Shown here: positions 5,069 through 16,075 of the stretch, one piece after another
Layout: each line of letters begins with the position of its first letter
Position numbering within the stretch: position 1 is the stretch's first letter
DNA from: a virus
Reading direction: 5' to 3' (one strand)
Virus record (IMG/VR): IMGVR_UViG_3300046003_002324
Span: 1 to 31,394 of that record
DNA length: 31,394 nt
The notes under the pieces: model-generated
Database searches by the model: none
The model's input: the letters and a program-made list of their open reading frames with translations, nothing else
What the model was told of the DNA's origin: nothing
Translations under genes and position numbers: made by a program

Positions 5069-5303
5069 CGGGATGTCTCCGTGTCATGAAGTCGAGAATA
5101 ACGGCACGCGTGCTGGCGTCTTTCTCCGTCTGCGCTTTCAACACTTCCACGCGAGCCATCGCCCAGCCCACGAGATAGCCCATAGCGTTCGCGCCACACC
5201 AACAGCCAACGGCATAGGTCGCCCATCGCGGTAGCTCAGCGGTCATGACCAACACGATGCCGCACACGAGATACACCACCCCTTTGATGAGCATCACAGC
5301 CAT
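5049..5303 (-). CDS. Small two-helix membrane protein, unknown function
   Basis: The 84-aa product has two hydrophobic segments, about residues 4-21 (LIKGVVYLVCGIVLVMTA) and 27-49 (WATYAVGCWCGANAMGYLVG). A short charged C-terminal tail follows (RVEVLKAQTEKDASTRAVIL). ATG 5303 has AGGA about 8 bases upstream and overlaps the TerL stop by 10 bases; a second ATG lies three codons in. A holin-like or inner-membrane accessory role is possible, but a better holin candidate sits beside the lysozyme at 24921-25085. Confidence 0.55.
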   Translation of the reverse strand: MAVMLIKGVVYLVCGIVLVMTAELPRWATYAVGCWCGANAMGYLVGWAMARVEVLKAQTEKDASTRAVILDFMTRRHPDGPTTH

Positions 5304-6568
5304 GAGGAAAATCCTACTCCAACACCGCCTCGCGTTACGGGTGGAAAATCCTGATGCACCCAGTAGCCCAACGCATCGGAGATGTGCGTCAGTAACGGGT
5401 TGCTGCGTTTGTCGAGGTCGCCAGACTCCGCGAACACGACCTGCTCAAGGTCGCTGATGAGATGCTCGCAGGATGGATCCACAGTTAACCACTGTCGCCC
5501 GTCGTGTGTTTCGCATCGGGCATTCACCGCTTGGATACGGTCACGCACATGCGGTGCCGCTTTAGGAATGCGCCATGACGCTCGAGGAAATACCTGCGCC
5601 AACACCGCATGGTCGGACGGCCCGGTGGTTTTGCCGGCTCGCCCAGCAGGGTCACCGTAACCATAGATAGGGCCAGTCCACTGCGCGGCATTCAAATGTG
5701 CTTGCACCGCAAGAGCCGCCGCTCGCGTCGCCTCGCCACCCGCGTGCGACACCCACACTTCGCGCCACACCCGAATCTCGTTGCCAATCCGTTGCCCGAT
5801 CACCGCCGTCGCCGGGTTCAGGTTGAAGTCAAATGAGATGCACACCGGCACCGCCGGGTCGAGCGTCGCCGGGCGCATGTGCGTCGCACGTGCGAACGCA
5901 TAGTAGGCGCGACCGGATAGCCCCTCGAAGCTGGCTTCAAACTCCTGCCGATACGTTCGCGGATCCATCTCTCGGCGCATCTGCTCGAGTGTGTCGGCAG
6001 GAATATGAGGCGCATCCGCGGTGCGGAATTGCCATGACTCCCACCCGGCATAGCGTTCGTCAGTCGACTGACCTCGTGCCCAGAGTGTATACAAATGGTT
6101 GAATTGTTTCGGCGTGCCCGTAATGAGTGCCGTGCCGTTCGTCGTCAGGAGCATCGGTTGAAGCACCTGCTCCCAAATCGTCATGCCGTCTTGCCAGTCT
6201 TGAAACTCATCGATCAGCAATTTCCGCACGCCACGTCCGCGAAGACGATCAGGCCGGTCGGCAGACTTAACGCTGAACTGACAGCCCCAAATGGTGTGCA
6301 TGTCCATGCGGCTGTCATTCGGTTCTTTAATGAGCCATGCACGCGGAATAATCGCACGCAATGGCTCCCAAAAGATTTCACGCCCCATGTCGTATGTCGG
6401 GGCCACATACCACACTTTGCCCGGTGTGCCGAACTCACACGTGGCGTCGGCCTTCTCGAGTTCTGTCTTGCCCCACCGTCGCCCTGCGACCACCACGCGA
6501 TAGCGTGCCCGTGACCGATACACTTTGGCTTGGCCGCGGTGCAACGACAACCGCACCGGGTCATTCAT
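5294..6568 (-). CDS. terL: Terminase large subunit
   Basis: This 424-aa enzyme is the ATP-driven DNA packaging motor and genome-cutting nuclease. The ATPase domain has a Walker A AGRRWGKT (residues 28-35), a Walker B LLIDE (117-121) and a coupling motif ITGTP (149-153). The C-terminal RNase H-like nuclease domain shows acidic residues at D246 (SFDFN), D305 (GYGDPAG) and D397 (HISDALGY), as in active terminases. Length fits a normal TerL. ATG 6568 overlaps the TerS stop (ATGAATGA). Packaging mode (cos or headful) cannot be read from the window. Terminus recognition may have to cope with modified bases if the upstream cassette is active. Confidence 0.93.
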   Translation of the reverse strand: MNDPVRLSLHRGQAKVYRSRARYRVVVAGRRWGKTELEKADATCEFGTPGKVWYVAPTYDMGREIFWEPLRAIIPRAWLIKEPNDSRMDMHTIWGCQFSVKSADRPDRLRGRGVRKLLIDEFQDWQDGMTIWEQVLQPMLLTTNGTALITGTPKQFNHLYTLWARGQSTDERYAGWESWQFRTADAPHIPADTLEQMRREMDPRTYRQEFEASFEGLSGRAYYAFARATHMRPATLDPAVPVCISFDFNLNPATAVIGQRIGNEIRVWREVWVSHAGGEATRAAALAVQAHLNAAQWTGPIYGYGDPAGRAGKTTGPSDHAVLAQVFPRASWRIPKAAPHVRDRIQAVNARCETHDGRQWLTVDPSCEHLISDLEQVVFAESGDLDKRSNPLLTHISDALGYWVHQDFPPVTRGGVGVGFSSWL

Positions 6569-7013
6569 CGTCGTCCGTCTGCACCTGTAGCACGAACTTT
6601 GGCAGCTCGCCGATAATCTCTTGCTTCGTGGCTGCGTCTAGCCCGAGATACCGTGACCGCCGTTCCTGCACACGGAGCAAGGTCGTGATGGCGGCAATGT
6701 CGCCCTGTGCGGCTCGAGGTGCGAGTGCCCGTGTGTAGTCGTCGAGCCGTCGCAGTTCGAGTTCACGCACTGCTGTCGCGTCTTCCACCGTTTGCAATCG
6801 CAACGCGGATAGTTCGGCCTGTACATCTGAGTAGGCCGTTTCAAGACTGACGCCGGTGGCCGTCGCAATCTGCTGATACGTGACCCCGGCACGGCGAAGA
6901 CTCAACGCCTTCGCTCGTCGTTCCATAATGATTGTGTCTTCAGCAATATGAGGAGGACGCGTTGCACGGCCCTTACCTCTGCGATGAGGCGCCACTGTTT
7001 TTTTGACACTCAT
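6561..7013 (-). CDS. terS: Terminase small subunit
   Basis: The 150-aa basic protein precedes TerL and has a helix-turn-helix near residues 40-65 (RRAGVTYQQIATATGVSLET), a central oligomerisation helix (ELELRRLDDYTRALAPRA) and a C-terminal tail, the usual TerS plan for DNA recognition and ring assembly. I use ATG 7013, which has GAAGG 7 bases upstream. An upstream in-frame TTG would add 8 residues and overlap the kinase gene. The stop overlaps TerL. Only 10 bases separate it from the DNA-kinase gene, so the modification cassette and packaging genes are probably on one transcript. Confidence 0.78.
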   Translation of the reverse strand: MSVKKTVAPHRRGKGRATRPPHIAEDTIIMERRAKALSLRRAGVTYQQIATATGVSLETAYSDVQAELSALRLQTVEDATAVRELELRRLDDYTRALAPRAAQGDIAAITTLLRVQERRSRYLGLDAATKQEIIGELPKFVLQVQTDDDE

Positions 7014-7023
7014 GGATTGGCCT

Positions 7024-7575
7024 TCACGCTTGCTCAACGATTGCCCAAACTTGTTCGGCTAACACATCTGGCGATTGCCGCGCATCCAAATGAATTACCG
7101 CTTGATGCCGTGCCGCCAGATTGGCGTGTTTCGTAATGCGCCCTCTCACCCACGACGTGGCTTGCAACGATAGCCCGTGAGCAGAGGCTCTTGCTGTGCG
7201 TCGTCGAGCCGCCTCATCATCAGGGCATGCGAGATAAAACGCTTTGAGCCGGAAGTGTTTTTGAGTCACTTCAAAAAACTTGTCATTCGCGAGTCGGTCA
7301 CCTTCGCCAAATACCAATTTGCCTGCCGCACATGATGACAGTGCGTGTAGCCACTGATCTGCGGTATTAATCGCCGTGTATGACAGCGTATCTGTGCCGC
7401 CAAATGGATATGCGTCCGCGCCTAAAATTGAAAACAAGCGACCGTGTTTATTAAAACAGCGATGTTTGATAGGGTCTTGTGCTTCATAGAGCAAGGACGC
7501 TGAGTTACAAACTGCCCTAAGCAAACTGGTTTTACCTGCCCCCGGTTGGCCGAAAACATACGCAAGAGTATTCAC
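7024..7575 (-). CDS. P-loop kinase, 5-hydroxymethyluracil-DNA kinase-like
   Basis: The 183-aa protein has a clean Walker A GQPGAGKTS (residues 9-17), a FGGTDTLSY segment (58-66), a LVFGEGDRLAN segment (87-97) holding the likely Walker B acids, and SWVRGRITKHANLA (141-154) with lid-type arginines. This arrangement resembles the small P-loop kinases that phosphorylate 5-hydroxymethyl-dU in phage DNA (5-HMUDK), here without the helical domain, which is a separate protein encoded next door. GTG 7575 has AGGAGG 4 bases upstream and overlaps the neighbour's stop (GTGA). The inferred role is to phosphorylate the hydroxymethyl group in DNA. A generic nucleotide kinase is the main alternative; the partner genes argue for the DNA-kinase reading. 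Confidence 0.75.
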   Translation of the reverse strand: MNTLAYVFGQPGAGKTSLLRAVCNSASLLYEAQDPIKHRCFNKHGRLFSILGADAYPFGGTDTLSYTAINTADQWLHALSSCAAGKLVFGEGDRLANDKFFEVTQKHFRLKAFYLACPDDEAARRRTARASAHGLSLQATSWVRGRITKHANLAARHQAVIHLDARQSPDVLAEQVWAIVEQA

Positions 7576-8447
7576 TGTGCCTCCTGACGCCAGCGAGCGT
7601 CAAATGTTTCGGCTCGATAATCCCACAACACTTGCCATTCGACTCCGCGATTTACACGTGTGGCCATCTCTTGAATTTCCTCGCGTTGCCGTTCAATATA
7701 AAATCCGACATATCGCTTGCCATAGCAATACTTCTTGTAGGCGCATAACGTCGTCTCAATGTTCCACACATTGTTGCGCGGGTCTGCGGTTTTCATCGTC
7801 GCCACTAAGGCATCGAATTGTTTCTGTAGATAGGCGTGTTGCGCCTTGTTTAGTTTGACGCCAGTGCCGTGCGTGTTCAGGTCTCCGCGATTTATGGCAA
7901 GAGCTAATCCGTTACGACAACTCTCAGCGTCAGTCATGTTCATTGACGTTGGTTCCATGGGAAACCCTGTCACGACGTGCAGCGCCTCCAGATAGAGGAA
8001 CATGGCGAATCGGCCAAATTGATACATTCGTGCAAAACTATTCCAGCAGTTGTGATAGTTCAGCCGAATGTCATGAGACTTTAGTTGTTCGAACCGTTGT
8101 TGCTGCGTGACTGGCCCAATGGTGGCGCGATAACTCTTGAACATGTCAACAAACTGATTTCTGGAATACACCCAGCGACGATCAGTCTGAAACACCAGTT
8201 GATGCTTGTGCGCTTTCCACCATCGCTCGAGTCTGCCCTCATCCACGTTCTCAAAGTCAGGGAACTCGTTGTAAATATAAAAGACTGTCGGGCCGCAATA
8301 ACAGGTCGCGTACAGCCACGCTAGCCAGTAGCGTTGTTCCACATTTAAATCAAACCGGTCACAGACATACCGAAGCATTGAATAGGACGGGTCAATATCA
8401 CCGGCCTCCATGCTTTGTTGGTGATACGTTTGGTAATCAACCAACAT
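7572..8447 (-). CDS. Amino-acid:DNA transferase / alpha-glutamyl-putrescinyl-thymine pyrophosphorylase-like protein
   Basis: This 291-aa protein has the all-helical, aromatic-rich character of the HMUDK-helical / aGPT-PPlase / amino-acid:DNA transferase group described in phage thymidine hypermodification. Recognisable blocks are GDIDPSYSMLRYVCDRFDL (residues 16-34), EQRYWLAWLYATCYCGPTVF (37-56), YIYNEFPDFENV (57-68), RLERWWKAHK (72-81) and NIETTLCAYKKYCYGKRY (229-246). Known members displace the activated (pyrophosphorylated) hydroxymethyl group with an amine or amino acid. I chose ATG 8447 with GGAG 9 bases upstream; it overlaps the amidotransferase stop by 11 bases. The identity of the incoming amine is not visible here. 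The family is recalled from motifs; a profile search would settle it. Confidence 0.75.
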   Translation of the reverse strand: MLVDYQTYHQQSMEAGDIDPSYSMLRYVCDRFDLNVEQRYWLAWLYATCYCGPTVFYIYNEFPDFENVDEGRLERWWKAHKHQLVFQTDRRWVYSRNQFVDMFKSYRATIGPVTQQQRFEQLKSHDIRLNYHNCWNSFARMYQFGRFAMFLYLEALHVVTGFPMEPTSMNMTDAESCRNGLALAINRGDLNTHGTGVKLNKAQHAYLQKQFDALVATMKTADPRNNVWNIETTLCAYKKYCYGKRYVGFYIERQREEIQEMATRVNRGVEWQVLWDYRAETFDARWRQEAQ

Positions 8448-9057
8448 GGACTGCGACTCCGCACGGCACGGGCGTGGGCAGTTCCGTAAAACCGGCTCGT
8501 CTAAAAATGTCAGCGGTCGATGCAAAGAATGTTGCGTTGTTGTGTTCTACTCGAAACAACGGGCGGTTTTTATTGCGAAGTGCAGTCATTCGACCGCGTT
8601 GCAGAGTCAACCCGGCAAATGAGAATCGCCCAGTCGCGACAAACTCCAGCCACCCGTCGTGGCGCACAAACTTATCAAGAAAGATTTCTCCATCATTTTC
8701 TGTGAGGTATGCGCGAGCATATTGCCGCTCATACTCTTCCTTGACTGCCATTGAAATTACTCCGTTAAACGCCAACGCCGCGTCAGCAATCTGCAGCGGT
8801 TGATTATTGTCAACGTTCTGGTAATCGCCACTTGTCGAGTAACGGCAGTGCCCGATTAGACGTGTCACCTGACGAGGCAGAGCGGCAAGGCACTGCTTGA
8901 AATCAAGGAACCGCTGTGTTGCAACACGCTGGCCGTCCCACGCAGAAAATCCGAACGCGTGCAAGCCGCGTACGCGAGACTCATAAAATAACGCACGCAC
9001 CGCGTCTGCGTGTTCTGTCTGCGGGTCATCGCACGCGTAACCAATCAGGGCGCACAT
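8437..9057 (-). CDS. Class II glutamine amidotransferase (Ntn hydrolase)
   Basis: The 206-aa protein begins Met-Cys, so removal of Met would expose the catalytic Cys1 typical of class II glutamine amidotransferases. Supporting motifs are LIGHCRYSTSGDYQNVDNNQ (residues 67-86) and an ALAFNGVIS block (93-101), matching the family's 'G-H-x-R-Y-S/T-x-G ... Q-P' and 'N-G-x-I' glutamine-binding elements. It is a stand-alone glutaminase domain without a fused synthetase, so ammonia or an amino group would have to pass to another protein, plausibly the transferase whose gene overlaps its end. ATG 9057 directly follows the previous stop (TGAATG). Known family members act in amide and amine transfer. 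A role in making an aminated DNA base is my inference from context. Confidence 0.8.
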   Translation of the reverse strand: MCALIGYACDDPQTEHADAVRALFYESRVRGLHAFGFSAWDGQRVATQRFLDFKQCLAALPRQVTRLIGHCRYSTSGDYQNVDNNQPLQIADAALAFNGVISMAVKEEYERQYARAYLTENDGEIFLDKFVRHDGWLEFVATGRFSFAGLTLQRGRMTALRNKNRPLFRVEHNNATFFASTADIFRRAGFTELPTPVPCGVAVHVG

Positions 9058-9456
9058 TCACCACCCCTGATATACGTTGAGCGTTTTTCCGCTTCTGCTT
9101 CTTGTCTGCCCGACGCACATCAAGCCCATTGCCCTGTAGAAGGCATTGCTTTCGACATTGTCTGCGTCTGTTTTTAGCGATACTGGACGACCCACTGCCT
9201 TCACCAACTGTTTGCCGATGCCAGAACGTTTGGCAGACTGACTCACGGCCATTTCAATAATTGTTTTCATCCCGCCAGTATTACGTTTGTAATGAACAAA
9301 TCCAACAGGACGCACGACTAGCAATGCGTGATTCGGCCTGTTGTATGAATTCAATAACCAAAACGGGTTGCCAAGGATTTTCTCGTTCGCATAGTACAAC
9401 AGTGTTATCCATGGAATGTCGTCTGCTTTCGCTTCGACAACATCGCTCTTGCTCAT
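9058..9456 (-). CDS. GNAT-family N-acyltransferase
   Basis: The 132-aa protein shows the GNAT core: a beta strand ending TIIEMAVSQSAKRSGIGKQL, in which the last part is the acetyl-CoA pyrophosphate-binding 'R/Q-x-x-G-x-G/A' loop (KRSGIG), and a C-terminal SLKTDADNVESNAFYRAMGL block (motif B: N-x-x-x-x-x-F-Y-x-x-x-G). I use ATG 9456 because it overlaps the dioxygenase stop as ATGA and has GGAG about 10 bases upstream; a further ATG at 9492 would overlap by 40 bases. GNAT proteins are known in phage thymidine hypermodification clusters, where they may acylate an amine on the base. Here the substrate is inferred from neighbours only. Confidence 0.8.
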   Translation of the reverse strand: MSKSDVVEAKADDIPWITLLYYANEKILGNPFWLLNSYNRPNHALLVVRPVGFVHYKRNTGGMKTIIEMAVSQSAKRSGIGKQLVKAVGRPVSLKTDADNVESNAFYRAMGLMCVGQTRSRSGKTLNVYQGW

Positions 9457-10361
9457 GACAAGCGTTCTCCGCGTTTGCGGTTCTTGGCCCATTCCACTTC
9501 CTCAGTGGCTGGTTTGCAATGAATCATATTTTCACGGAAGTAAAACACCATCGTGATGCGTTCATAGCCCACGCGCATTTTTGAAAATCCGGTATTGCTG
9601 TGCCACTCGTGCACATCTGCTAAACACAAACAGCCGTGTTCCAAATTGACGGCCACGCGATACGCTGGAAACACAAGGTATGCGCCGTCAAATTTGTTAT
9701 TCCGTAAACACGACATGACGCCAAAACCTGCGGCTAAATCTCCGGCGTCTTTATGAGTGGCCGTCTGCCAGTTTTTATTGACCGTCACCGTCGTGAATGT
9801 GCTTTGTGGGATGATCCAGTCCGATGCCGTTCTGTCGGCATACTCGCGTTGCGCGGCCCATCGCTCGGGCAATAGCTGACGCAGCCCTTCATCTGCGCGT
9901 TGAATATACGGCAGGAACTGTTTCCACGAGGCGGCTTGAACAATATTGAATGACGTTTGACGACAAAACGGAAACCTTGATGAACGGTCAAAATATCCAA
10001 TGACGCCGCTGTTCACAGGAGCTGCATAATTGGTATTGCTCAGGGTGCCATCAGATTTTATTGGAATATAACGCGTCTGTGTTCGTTTGCCGGCAACACG
10101 TTCTGGAACTGTTTCAAACGTCCCCGCCGCCATACCTCGGTTGTTGGTTTCAGTGGCGGCTTTACGAGCCGACGGCAATACCGCAGCACAAAGCTCAGCT
10201 GAAAACCACTGGGGCCGATACTTGACGAGCGGGGTGCCGTCGGGTTTGTAGATGTCGCAAGCCTCGTCACCACCCAACACTTCGTCGTAAAACGCTTCTG
10301 TCAATTTGGTGCCGGCCAGATGGTCGGCGTCAAACTTATGTTTGCAATGATGCACTCTCAC
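9453..10361 (-). CDS. TET/JBP-family Fe(II)/2-oxoglutarate dioxygenase (DNA base hydroxylase)
   Basis: The 302-aa product (counting from GTG 10361) contains the TET/JBP signature. TTVTVNKNWQTATHKDAGDL gives the iron-binding H203-x-D205, followed by GAYLVFPAYRVAVNLEHG, then CLADVHEWHSNTGF with the distal histidine H251 (or H254), and ERITMVFYFREN with R268 positioned to bind 2-oxoglutarate. TET/JBP enzymes hydroxylate the 5-methyl group of T or 5mC in DNA. No cytosine methyltransferase is in the window, and the neighbours are hydroxymethyl-U kinase/transferase-like, so thymine is the favoured substrate (inference). GTG 10361 has GGAGG 9 bases upstream and overlaps the ParB-like gene by 26 bases; a TTG at 10418 is open in frame but lacks support. 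Confidence 0.82.
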   Translation of the reverse strand: MRVHHCKHKFDADHLAGTKLTEAFYDEVLGGDEACDIYKPDGTPLVKYRPQWFSAELCAAVLPSARKAATETNNRGMAAGTFETVPERVAGKRTQTRYIPIKSDGTLSNTNYAAPVNSGVIGYFDRSSRFPFCRQTSFNIVQAASWKQFLPYIQRADEGLRQLLPERWAAQREYADRTASDWIIPQSTFTTVTVNKNWQTATHKDAGDLAAGFGVMSCLRNNKFDGAYLVFPAYRVAVNLEHGCLCLADVHEWHSNTGFSKMRVGYERITMVFYFRENMIHCKPATEEVEWAKNRKRGERLS

Positions 10362-10974
10362 GGGTAACTGCCTCCAAGACCGTGTCTGTAATGTTTTTCG
10401 TGCCGTATGCCTCCGCAAGCGCAGTGCACGCGTTCTGAAAATCTACGATGTTCGATTCATCAAGGAACAATTGCACCATGCGGACGCCGCTCGGCGTCAA
10501 TTCATTGGCGTTGTCTATGTCGTGCGTTGACGCTGGACGCACTTCCTCGTCGGCGTCATCTTTATACAGTCCTGCGGCATTAGCTGTTGCGGTAATCAGC
10601 CTTTGCAGGTCGGCGTTGCCTGTATCAATGCTCTGCAGCAGTTCATCAAGCTTTTGAGCATCAGACCCGGCCATCGCAGCTAACGGGTCAAGTGTTGCCA
10701 ACAGCTTATCTGCCTCAGCCTCGCTGACATCCAGCACCAACACCGGCACTACGGCGGTGCCGACGGTTTCCGCACGGAGATGCCCGTCAATAAGCATCAG
10801 CGTGCCGTCTGGAAGTTCACGCGCAATACACGCGTCGGCCATGCCGATTTCTGACAGCAAACCCCGCAATGCATTTTTCTGCGGGACTTGATGTGTGCGC
10901 CAGTTTTTCGGGTTGGGCCGCAGGTCGGCGGCTGGCACCCGGCGAAGTTCTTTGATGCGGTCACGAATCTGCAT
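10336..10974 (-). CDS. ParB-like (ParB/sulfiredoxin-fold) protein of the modification cassette
   Basis: This 212-aa protein has a ParB N-terminal-type domain: PADLRPNPKNWRTH-like start (VPAADLRPNPKNWRTHQVP, residues 13-31), ALRGLLSEIGMADACIAREL (35-54) and the nucleotide-binding LIDGHLRAE box (61-69). A linker DPLAAMAGSDAQKLDELL and a C-terminal domain with NELTPSGVRMVQLFLDESN follow. ParB-like proteins are recurrent partners of TET/JBP and aGPT-PPlase genes in phages; a DNA-targeting or NTPase role has been proposed but I know of no firm function. ATG 10974 has no clear ribosome site. It is the first gene of the cassette, after a 90-base gap, so a transcript start just upstream is possible. 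Confidence 0.75.
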   Translation of the reverse strand: MQIRDRIKELRRVPAADLRPNPKNWRTHQVPQKNALRGLLSEIGMADACIARELPDGTLMLIDGHLRAETVGTAVVPVLVLDVSEAEADKLLATLDPLAAMAGSDAQKLDELLQSIDTGNADLQRLITATANAAGLYKDDADEEVRPASTHDIDNANELTPSGVRMVQLFLDESNIVDFQNACTALAEAYGTKNITDTVLEAVTRESASLQT

Positions 10975-11768: not shown

Positions 11769-14701
<2,933 letters not shown>

Positions 14702-14705
<4 letters not shown>

Positions 14706-15818: not shown

Positions 15819-16075
15819 CGCGTCCCCTCCATCAGCGCCCGGATGCGCCGTGCCATCTCCGCTGCCGCGTCTTTGCCGCCCCACGTTTCGGCGGTCGCTT
15901 CCACCTCGTCGGCCACCGATGCACAATGCGCGAGCAGTTCTGCCCGCGCCTCGTCGCGCTCTTCCCGCAGCCGCTCGACTTCGGCCCGATGGTCGTCGTA
16001 GCGTATCCATTCGCCATCGACCGCTGGCGTATACACGCAAGGGCCATAAATAATAAACCGTTGAATATCACTCAT
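15815..16075 (-). CDS. Small coiled-coil protein, unknown
   Basis: The 86-aa product starts MSDIQRFIIYGPCVYTPAVD, with a helical charged centre YDDHRAEVERLREERDEARA and end MARRIRALMEGTR. ATG 16075 lies inside the end of the preceding gene (8-base overlap). The N-terminal 25 residues look beta-like, the remainder a coiled coil. No family is recognised. Confidence 0.5.
   Translation of the reverse strand: MSDIQRFIIYGPCVYTPAVDGEWIRYDDHRAEVERLREERDEARAELLAHCASVADEVEATAETWGGKDAAAEMARRIRALMEGTR

What the first reader, a model, noticed from the sequence alone, without database searches (positions are those of the whole stretch)
9453..10361. TET/JBP enzyme likely acting on thymine rather than 5-methylcytosine
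The HxD...H...R residues (H203, D205, H251, R268) look complete, so the enzyme should be active. Some phage TETs are known to act on 5mC together with a phage cytosine methyltransferase. No such methyltransferase is in this window, and the neighbours are of the hydroxymethyl-U type. That would make it a JBP-like thymine hydroxylase in a phage.
Basis: partly seen in the sequence, partly recalled or inferred. Interest (0 to 1): 0.75.

Follow-up and report, generated by a model that had tools for sequence, protein, structure and literature searches.

The report
Phage enzyme hydroxylating thymine in DNA
This virus of bacteria carries a TET-type enzyme that most likely oxidises ordinary thymines in its own DNA so that a row of neighbouring genes can hang a larger chemical group on them, probably as armour against bacterial defences; the idea had been predicted for phages, but the gene evidence here is sharper and the set of decorating genes is a variant.

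Summary
Window 9453-10361, minus strand, is a 302-aa TET/JBP dioxygenase (Pfam PF12851, 2e-19; AlphaFold model closest to TET2 and NgTET1). The active site is complete, with one correction: the distal iron histidine is H254, not H251.

Thymine rather than 5mC is well supported by genomics, not by biochemistry. (1) The gene lies in a coupled operon ParB-TET-GNAT-GATase-ADDT-kinase; the ADDT is homologous to that of phage ViI, whose DNA carries hypermodified thymine. (2) No C5 methyltransferase lies in this record, in any of 11 complete ADDT phages, or next to any of 47 related TETs. (3) TETs beside a C5 methyltransferase (65 of 73 loci) form a separate clade without ADDT. (4) Among complete ADDT phages, six have a divergent thymidylate-synthase homologue (dUMP-hydroxymethylase family) and no TET; four have TET and no such gene: TET stands in as the hmU source.

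The kinase alone is not diagnostic; a homologue occurs in 5mC-type cassettes. JBP membership was not testable. Phage TET/JBP in thymidine hypermodification was already predicted and annotated; the variant part is the glutamine-amidotransferase plus acetyltransferase branch. Activity on T remains unproven.

The parts
9453..10361 (-). TET/JBP 2-oxoglutarate/Fe(II) dioxygenase, 302 aa; iron ligands H203 (9753-9755), D205 (9747-9749), H254 (9600-9602); 2OG arginine R268 (9558-9560)
   Evidence: PF12851 2.2e-19; fold TET2 Z 21.8; residues; GTG start with GGAGG
10336..10974 (-). ParB-like protein, first gene of the cassette; overlaps the TET start
   Evidence: phrog_620 1e-10, phrog_498 1.8e-13; ParB homologue upstream of 51 of 51 related TETs
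9058..9456 (-). GNAT N-acetyltransferase; ATG at 9456 overlaps the TET stop (ATGA)
   Evidence: PF13508 8.9e-7, PF00583 1.4e-6; junction; 24 of 47 related cassettes
8437..9057 (-). Class II (Ntn) glutamine amidotransferase domain, no synthetase domain; starts Met-Cys, the catalytic N-terminal Cys
   Evidence: PF13522 1.8e-8; all 50 relatives start MC
7572..8447 (-). ADDT, amino acid:DNA transferase homologue; overlaps GATase
   Evidence: PF18724 5.6e-23; homologous to Salmonella phage Vi01 protein, 27.7%, 6e-12 (H87)
7024..7575 (-). P-loop nucleotide kinase, predicted hmU-DNA kinase; GTGA overlap with the ADDT stop
   Evidence: PF18751 3.2e-14; junction
6561..7013 (-). Terminase small subunit-like HTH protein, next gene downstream (context)
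   Evidence: HTH_23 6.3e-5; adjacent to terminase
5294..6568 (-). Terminase large subunit (context)
   Evidence: PF03237 4.9e-8

Best explanation
The enzyme hydroxylates the methyl group of thymine in phage DNA after replication, giving 5-hydroxymethyluracil (hmU). The P-loop kinase then phosphorylates the hydroxymethyl group. The ADDT displaces the phosphate with an amino nucleophile, with the glutamine amidotransferase probably supplying it (ammonia from glutamine) or trimming it, and the GNAT probably acetylates the resulting amine. The ParB-like protein probably binds DNA and directs or loads the machinery. The product would be a hypermodified thymine that shields phage DNA from host nucleases. 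Shown here: gene identities, intact catalytic motifs, conserved cassette, absence of C5 methyltransferase, mutual exclusion with divergent thymidylate-synthase homologues. Inferred: substrate T, order of steps, chemistry of the final base, protective role.
For: Coupled operon ParB-TET-GNAT-GATase-ADDT-kinase. In 47 related TET loci with 3.5 kb downstream: kinase in 42, ADDT 36, GATase 33, GNAT 24, adjacent C5 methyltransferase 0; ParB upstream in 51 of 51. Of 40 ADDT loci with 4 kb flanks, 38 have TET. PF00145 in 4 of 45 and 1 of 29 whole records, only the distant Melnitz one next to TET. ADDT homologous to phage Vi01, whose DNA holds 5-NeOmdU and hmdU (PMC6449724). Complete ADDT phages: divergent PF00303 (33-59 bits) without TET in Vi01, Ag3, D503, Ds23CZ, VPALA, IME250; TET without PF00303 in Magpie, Kozie, CloverMinnie, MO526; PF00145 0 of 11. 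C5-linked TETs are a separate clade, 100/100, without ADDT. No DNA polymerase or thymidylate synthase recognised in the window, so hmdUTP incorporation is unlikely. Related cassettes swap later genes (FAD-type oxidoreductase, TET-associated glycosyltransferase) but keep TET.
Against: No activity or base analysis. The record is incomplete. Nearest solved folds are 5mC enzymes. D208, equivalent by position to an NgTET1 residue said to contact the 5mC amino group (from memory), is invariant in both classes. A kinase homologue occurs in 5mC-type cassettes. One relative (G002) has a C5 methyltransferase about 4 kb from TET, though its close relatives G005, G007 and G018 have none. The mutual exclusion rests on 10 genomes, several closely related.
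Confidence: 0.85

Rival explanations
1. The enzyme is a conventional phage TET that oxidises 5-methylcytosine, made by a C5 methyltransferase in the unsequenced part of the genome or by the host, and the kinase and ADDT then decorate hmC.
For: Experimentally studied phage TETs act on 5mC (Burke 2021, from memory; summarised in PMC12730594). Melnitz-type loci pair C5 methyltransferase, TET and a PF18751-like kinase. Record incomplete.
Against: No C5 methyltransferase adjacent to 47 related TETs, in 11 complete ADDT phages or in complete relatives HTVC112P, P12024L, DLP6, Cr30, S-CBWM1, C48C1. C5-linked TETs are a separate clade without ADDT.
Confidence: 0.08
2. Base-J-like route: hmU made by the TET is glycosylated, for instance by the glycosyltransferase-methyltransferase fusion encoded just past the left end of the window, and ADDT and kinase act elsewhere or are vestigial.
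For: Glyco_trans_1_4 domain in L076 17887-19602; related TETs sit next to TET-associated glycosyltransferases in L038, L053, L064 and P12024L.
Against: The fusion gene lies behind the capsid gene, outside the cassette; it is not a TAGT; ADDT, GATase and kinase are coupled to TET in this operon.
Confidence: 0.03
3. The enzyme acts on another substrate (N6-methyladenine, as reported for CcTet, or RNA, or a free nucleotide) or is inactive.
For: Fold matches include CcTet bound to 6mA DNA and AlkB-like enzymes.
Against: Catalytic residues invariant; 38 of 40 ADDT loci carry TET; no adenine methyltransferase found among the window genes scanned.
Confidence: 0.04

Closest known systems
Predicted phage TET/JBP thymidine-hypermodification cassettes (Iyer 2013, from memory; Rhodococcus phage Tonitrus, PMC11955845; Mycobacterium phages such as Magpie)
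   Same: ParB-like, TET/JBP, ADDT or aGPT-Pplase, P-loop kinase, then terminase in Magpie, in the same order
   Different: Window adds a GNAT and a class II glutamine amidotransferase; its TET is far from the Magpie type, in a different deep branch
Salmonella phage ViI / Pseudomonas phage M6 thymidine hypermodification (Lee 2018, 2022)
   Same: Homologous ADDT; hmU kinase step; amino group carried on the thymine methyl (PMC6449724)
   Different: There hmU is made before replication (divergent PF00303 present, no TET); here TET would make hmU on finished DNA; kinase is PF18751 here and PF18747 in Vi01
Phage TET cytosine hypermodification (Burke 2021; Melnitz-type loci here)
   Same: TET/JBP dioxygenase starting a phage base modification; a P-loop kinase may follow
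   Different: C5 methyltransferase adjacent, no ADDT, separate clade, about 28% identity
Trypanosomatid JBP1/JBP2
   Same: Predicted reaction T to hmU in DNA

Membership tests
TET/JBP dioxygenase superfamily | Tet_JBP domain above curated cut-off | tested here: met
   PF12851 69.7 bits vs 34.9
TET/JBP dioxygenase superfamily | HxD...H iron triad and 2OG arginine | tested here: met
   H203, D205, H254, R268 invariant in 33 TETs; H254 aligns with the TET2 LHATTP His
TET/JBP dioxygenase superfamily | Fold nearest to TET enzymes | tested here: met
   TET2 Z 21.8, NgTET1 Z 20.0
TET-initiated thymidine hypermodification | hmU kinase and ADDT/aGPT-Pplase in the operon | tested here: met
   PF18751 and PF18724, coupled
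TET-initiated thymidine hypermodification | No C5 methyltransferase supplying 5mC | tested here: met
   the window record itself is incomplete
TET-initiated thymidine hypermodification | hmU or derivative in virion DNA; activity on T | not testable with these tools
   Needs enzyme assay and LC-MS
Phage 5mC-type TET systems | C5 methyltransferase next to TET | tested here: not met
   None in the window; 0 of 47 related loci; 65 of 73 in the Melnitz group
JBP (kinetoplastid) | Closer kinship to JBP than to TET | not testable with these tools
   No JBP dioxygenase sequence or structure on hand
JBP (kinetoplastid) | J-binding domain (JBP1) | tested here: inconclusive
   No second Pfam domain in the 302 aa; JBP2 also lacks it (from memory)

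The most novel reading that the evidence does not exclude
The operon builds an ammonia-derived thymine: the amidotransferase releases ammonia from glutamine, the ADDT uses it to displace the phosphate from phosphomethyl-U and gives 5-aminomethyl-dU, and the GNAT acetylates it; glycine addition and flavin cleavage, as in the known pathway, are bypassed. TET-made hmU feeding a glutamine-dependent ADDT would be a new branch of thymidine hypermodification.
Probability: 0.3. Interest if true: 0.68.

Novelty: new variant of a known kind. Interest (0 to 1): 0.5.

Why it matters
If phage TETs split into a cytosine class and a thymine class, the thymine class gives an enzyme that writes hmU on finished DNA, and a paired set of sequences from which to learn how the TET pocket tells T from 5mC. 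It also separates two routes to the same intermediate in phages, one at the nucleotide level (dUMP hydroxymethylase) and one at the DNA level (TET), which do not co-occur in the genomes tested. The glutamine amidotransferase and GNAT suggest a thymine derivative not among those I know to be described.

Tried and rejected
Pocket residues as the decider: rejected, because D208 (HxD+3) is conserved in both the ADDT-linked and the C5-linked class. Positions that do differ between classes (for example T193, V194, G214, V250, N256, R276) are listed only as candidates. H251 as the distal iron ligand: rejected in favour of H254. The kinase as proof of hmU: rejected, as a homologue occurs in 5mC-type cassettes. 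Single-sequence search of the PDB: no match; the profile search found only weak TET2 matches, so the fold was used instead. Nucleotide search for the virus among deposited phages: no match. ADDT single-sequence scan of viral contigs: only two loci, replaced by an alignment scan. Key papers (Iyer 2013, Burke 2021, Lee 2022) are not held. Literature searches found no experimental report of a phage TET acting on thymine in the held library; that library is partial. Mycobacterium phage Cooper was not in the collection under the accession tried; Magpie of the same genus was used.

Full report
Observation. The finding lies on the minus strand; the + strand reading of 9453-10361 is broken by stops. 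The minus-strand ORF 9453-10418 holds a GTG start at 10361 preceded by GGAGG. The 302-residue product matches Pfam Tet_JBP (PF12851, 2.2e-19, 69.7 bits, cut-off 34.9). H203, D205 and R268 are invariant in 33 TETs from two phage classes. H251 is not the distal iron ligand: it is invariant only in the window's class and is Gln in the C5-linked class (sequence, ADSQEVHGVTP), while H254 is invariant in all 33 and aligns with the TET2 LHATTP histidine, which lies about 15 residues before the 2OG arginine. The site is therefore complete with H203, D205, H254 and R268. An AlphaFold2 model from 33 sequences has pLDDT 88 and pTM 0.86. Its best solved matches are human TET2 (Z 21.8, 254 residues, rmsd 3.1), NgTET1 (Z 20.0), CMD1 (18.3) and CcTet (17.6); ALKBH3 follows at 15.1. 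So it is a TET/JBP dioxygenase, very probably active.

Operon. The gene is second in a tightly coupled minus-strand run: ParB-like protein 10336-10974, TET, GNAT (ATG at 9456 overlapping the TET stop as ATGA), class II glutamine amidotransferase 8437-9057, ADDT 7572-8447, P-loop kinase 7024-7575 (GTGA overlap), then terminase. The amidotransferase starts Met-Cys, as do all 50 relatives examined, so the N-terminal nucleophile of class II amidotransferases is kept.

Conservation of the cassette. A scan of viral contigs gave 68 loci with a TET relative. With family profiles on these loci, of 47 with at least 3.5 kb downstream 42 have the kinase, 36 an ADDT, 33 the amidotransferase and 24 the GNAT within 6 kb; none has a C5 methyltransferase there. 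ParB lies upstream in 51 of 51. Starting from ADDT instead, 38 of 40 loci with 4 kb on both sides carry a TET; the other two carry a radical SAM protein. Many contigs are related, so these numbers are not independent events. Some relatives change the later genes: a short ADDT plus FAD-type oxidoreductase and kinase (L006, L042), or TET-associated glycosyltransferases (L038, L053, L064). TET and ParB are the constant part.

Is the substrate T or 5mC? Four tests. First, C5 methyltransferase (PF00145) is absent from the record, found in 4 of 45 whole records of relatives and 1 of 29 further ADDT records. Only the distant Melnitz phage has it beside TET. In G002 it lies about 4 kb from the cassette, in G012 and G028 further away; close relatives of G002 lack it. 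Complete relatives HTVC112P, P12024L, DLP6, Cr30, S-CBWM1 and C48C1 have none. Second, a contrast group was built from the Melnitz TET: 65 of 73 such loci have the C5 methyltransferase adjacent, and 16 records plus Melnitz have no ADDT. On the tree these form one clade (100/100), apart from the window, whose sister is the ADDT-linked L150. Third, the window ADDT is homologous to the protein of Salmonella phage Vi01 (27.7%, 6e-12), whose DNA is measured to hold 43% 5-NeOmdU and 7% hmdU among thymine-derived bases (PMC6449724). Fourth, among complete ADDT phages, Vi01, Ag3, D503, Ds23CZ, VPALA and IME250 have a divergent PF00303 protein (33-59 bits, the family of dUMP hydroxymethylases) and no TET, whereas Magpie, Kozie, CloverMinnie and MO526 have TET and no PF00303. 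A chance split of ten genomes that way has probability 1 in 210 if they were independent, which they are not fully. Cr30 has TET and a canonical thymidylate synthase (373 bits). PF00145 is absent from all eleven. TET thus occupies the place of the hmU-making enzyme. No DNA polymerase or thymidylate synthase was recognised in the window, which fits oxidation after replication.

The distal histidine is H254. The kinase by itself does not mark hmU: Melnitz-type cassettes with a C5 methyltransferase carry a PF18751-like kinase too. The argument stands on ADDT. The pocket does not decide: D208 at HxD+3 is shared by both classes. 'JBP-like' describes the predicted reaction; membership in JBP could not be tested.

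Mechanism proposed. T in DNA to hmU (TET), to phosphomethyl-U (kinase), to an amino-substituted thymine (ADDT, with the amidotransferase as ammonia source or trimming enzyme), then acetylation (GNAT). Acetyltransferases and flavin enzymes are part of the published thymidine hypermodification toolkit (Lee 2022, recalled, not held). That the amidotransferase feeds ammonia to ADDT is my inference (about 0.3).

Novelty. Phage TET/JBP in thymidine hypermodification was predicted by Iyer 2013 (recalled; cited for gene-cluster prediction in PMC6449724), and the same ParB, TET-like, aGPT-Pplase, hmU-kinase set is annotated as thymidine hypermodification in phage Tonitrus (PMC11955845). I found no experimental proof of a phage TET on thymine in the held library. 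The finding is a variant of a known, predicted kind with an amidotransferase-GNAT branch.

Noticed in passing
L157 10768-12018 (99.6 kb contig), L194 6235-7524, L208 8001-9272: ADDT-kinase cassettes without a recognisable TET or PF00303 carry a radical SAM protein instead (2 of 40 well-flanked ADDT loci, never together with TET). It may be a later-step enzyme as in phage M6 or an oxygen-free stand-in for TET; the 99.6 kb contig also has a C5 methyltransferase about 7 kb from ADDT.
   Followed up: partly
L070 7902-10167 (Nonlabens phage P12024L); L038, L053, L064: TET next to TET-associated glycosyltransferase (PF20691); P12024L is a complete genome without a C5 methyltransferase, so a glycosylated hmU (base-J-like) in a phage is possible.
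   Followed up: partly
L069 7599-9195 (Pelagibacter phage HTVC112P): ParB-TET followed by an FkbM-type methyltransferase (PF05050), with no ADDT or C5 methyltransferase in the complete genome.
   Followed up: no
L075 7557-8090 and L078-L148: Cytosine-type cassettes C5 methyltransferase-TET-kinase: a predicted hmC kinase, with an unknown 427-aa protein between.
   Followed up: partly
L076 17887-19602 (same virus, just past window position 1): Glycosyltransferase-SAM methyltransferase fusion gene behind the capsid gene.
   Followed up: partly
window 15942-15987: Two assemblies of this virus differ near a short repeat here: the other contig has roughly 50 extra bases.
   Followed up: no
window 11769-14705: 978-aa collagen-like (GXX repeat) tail-fibre-type protein with an internal repeat of about 350 bases at 79% identity.
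   Followed up: no
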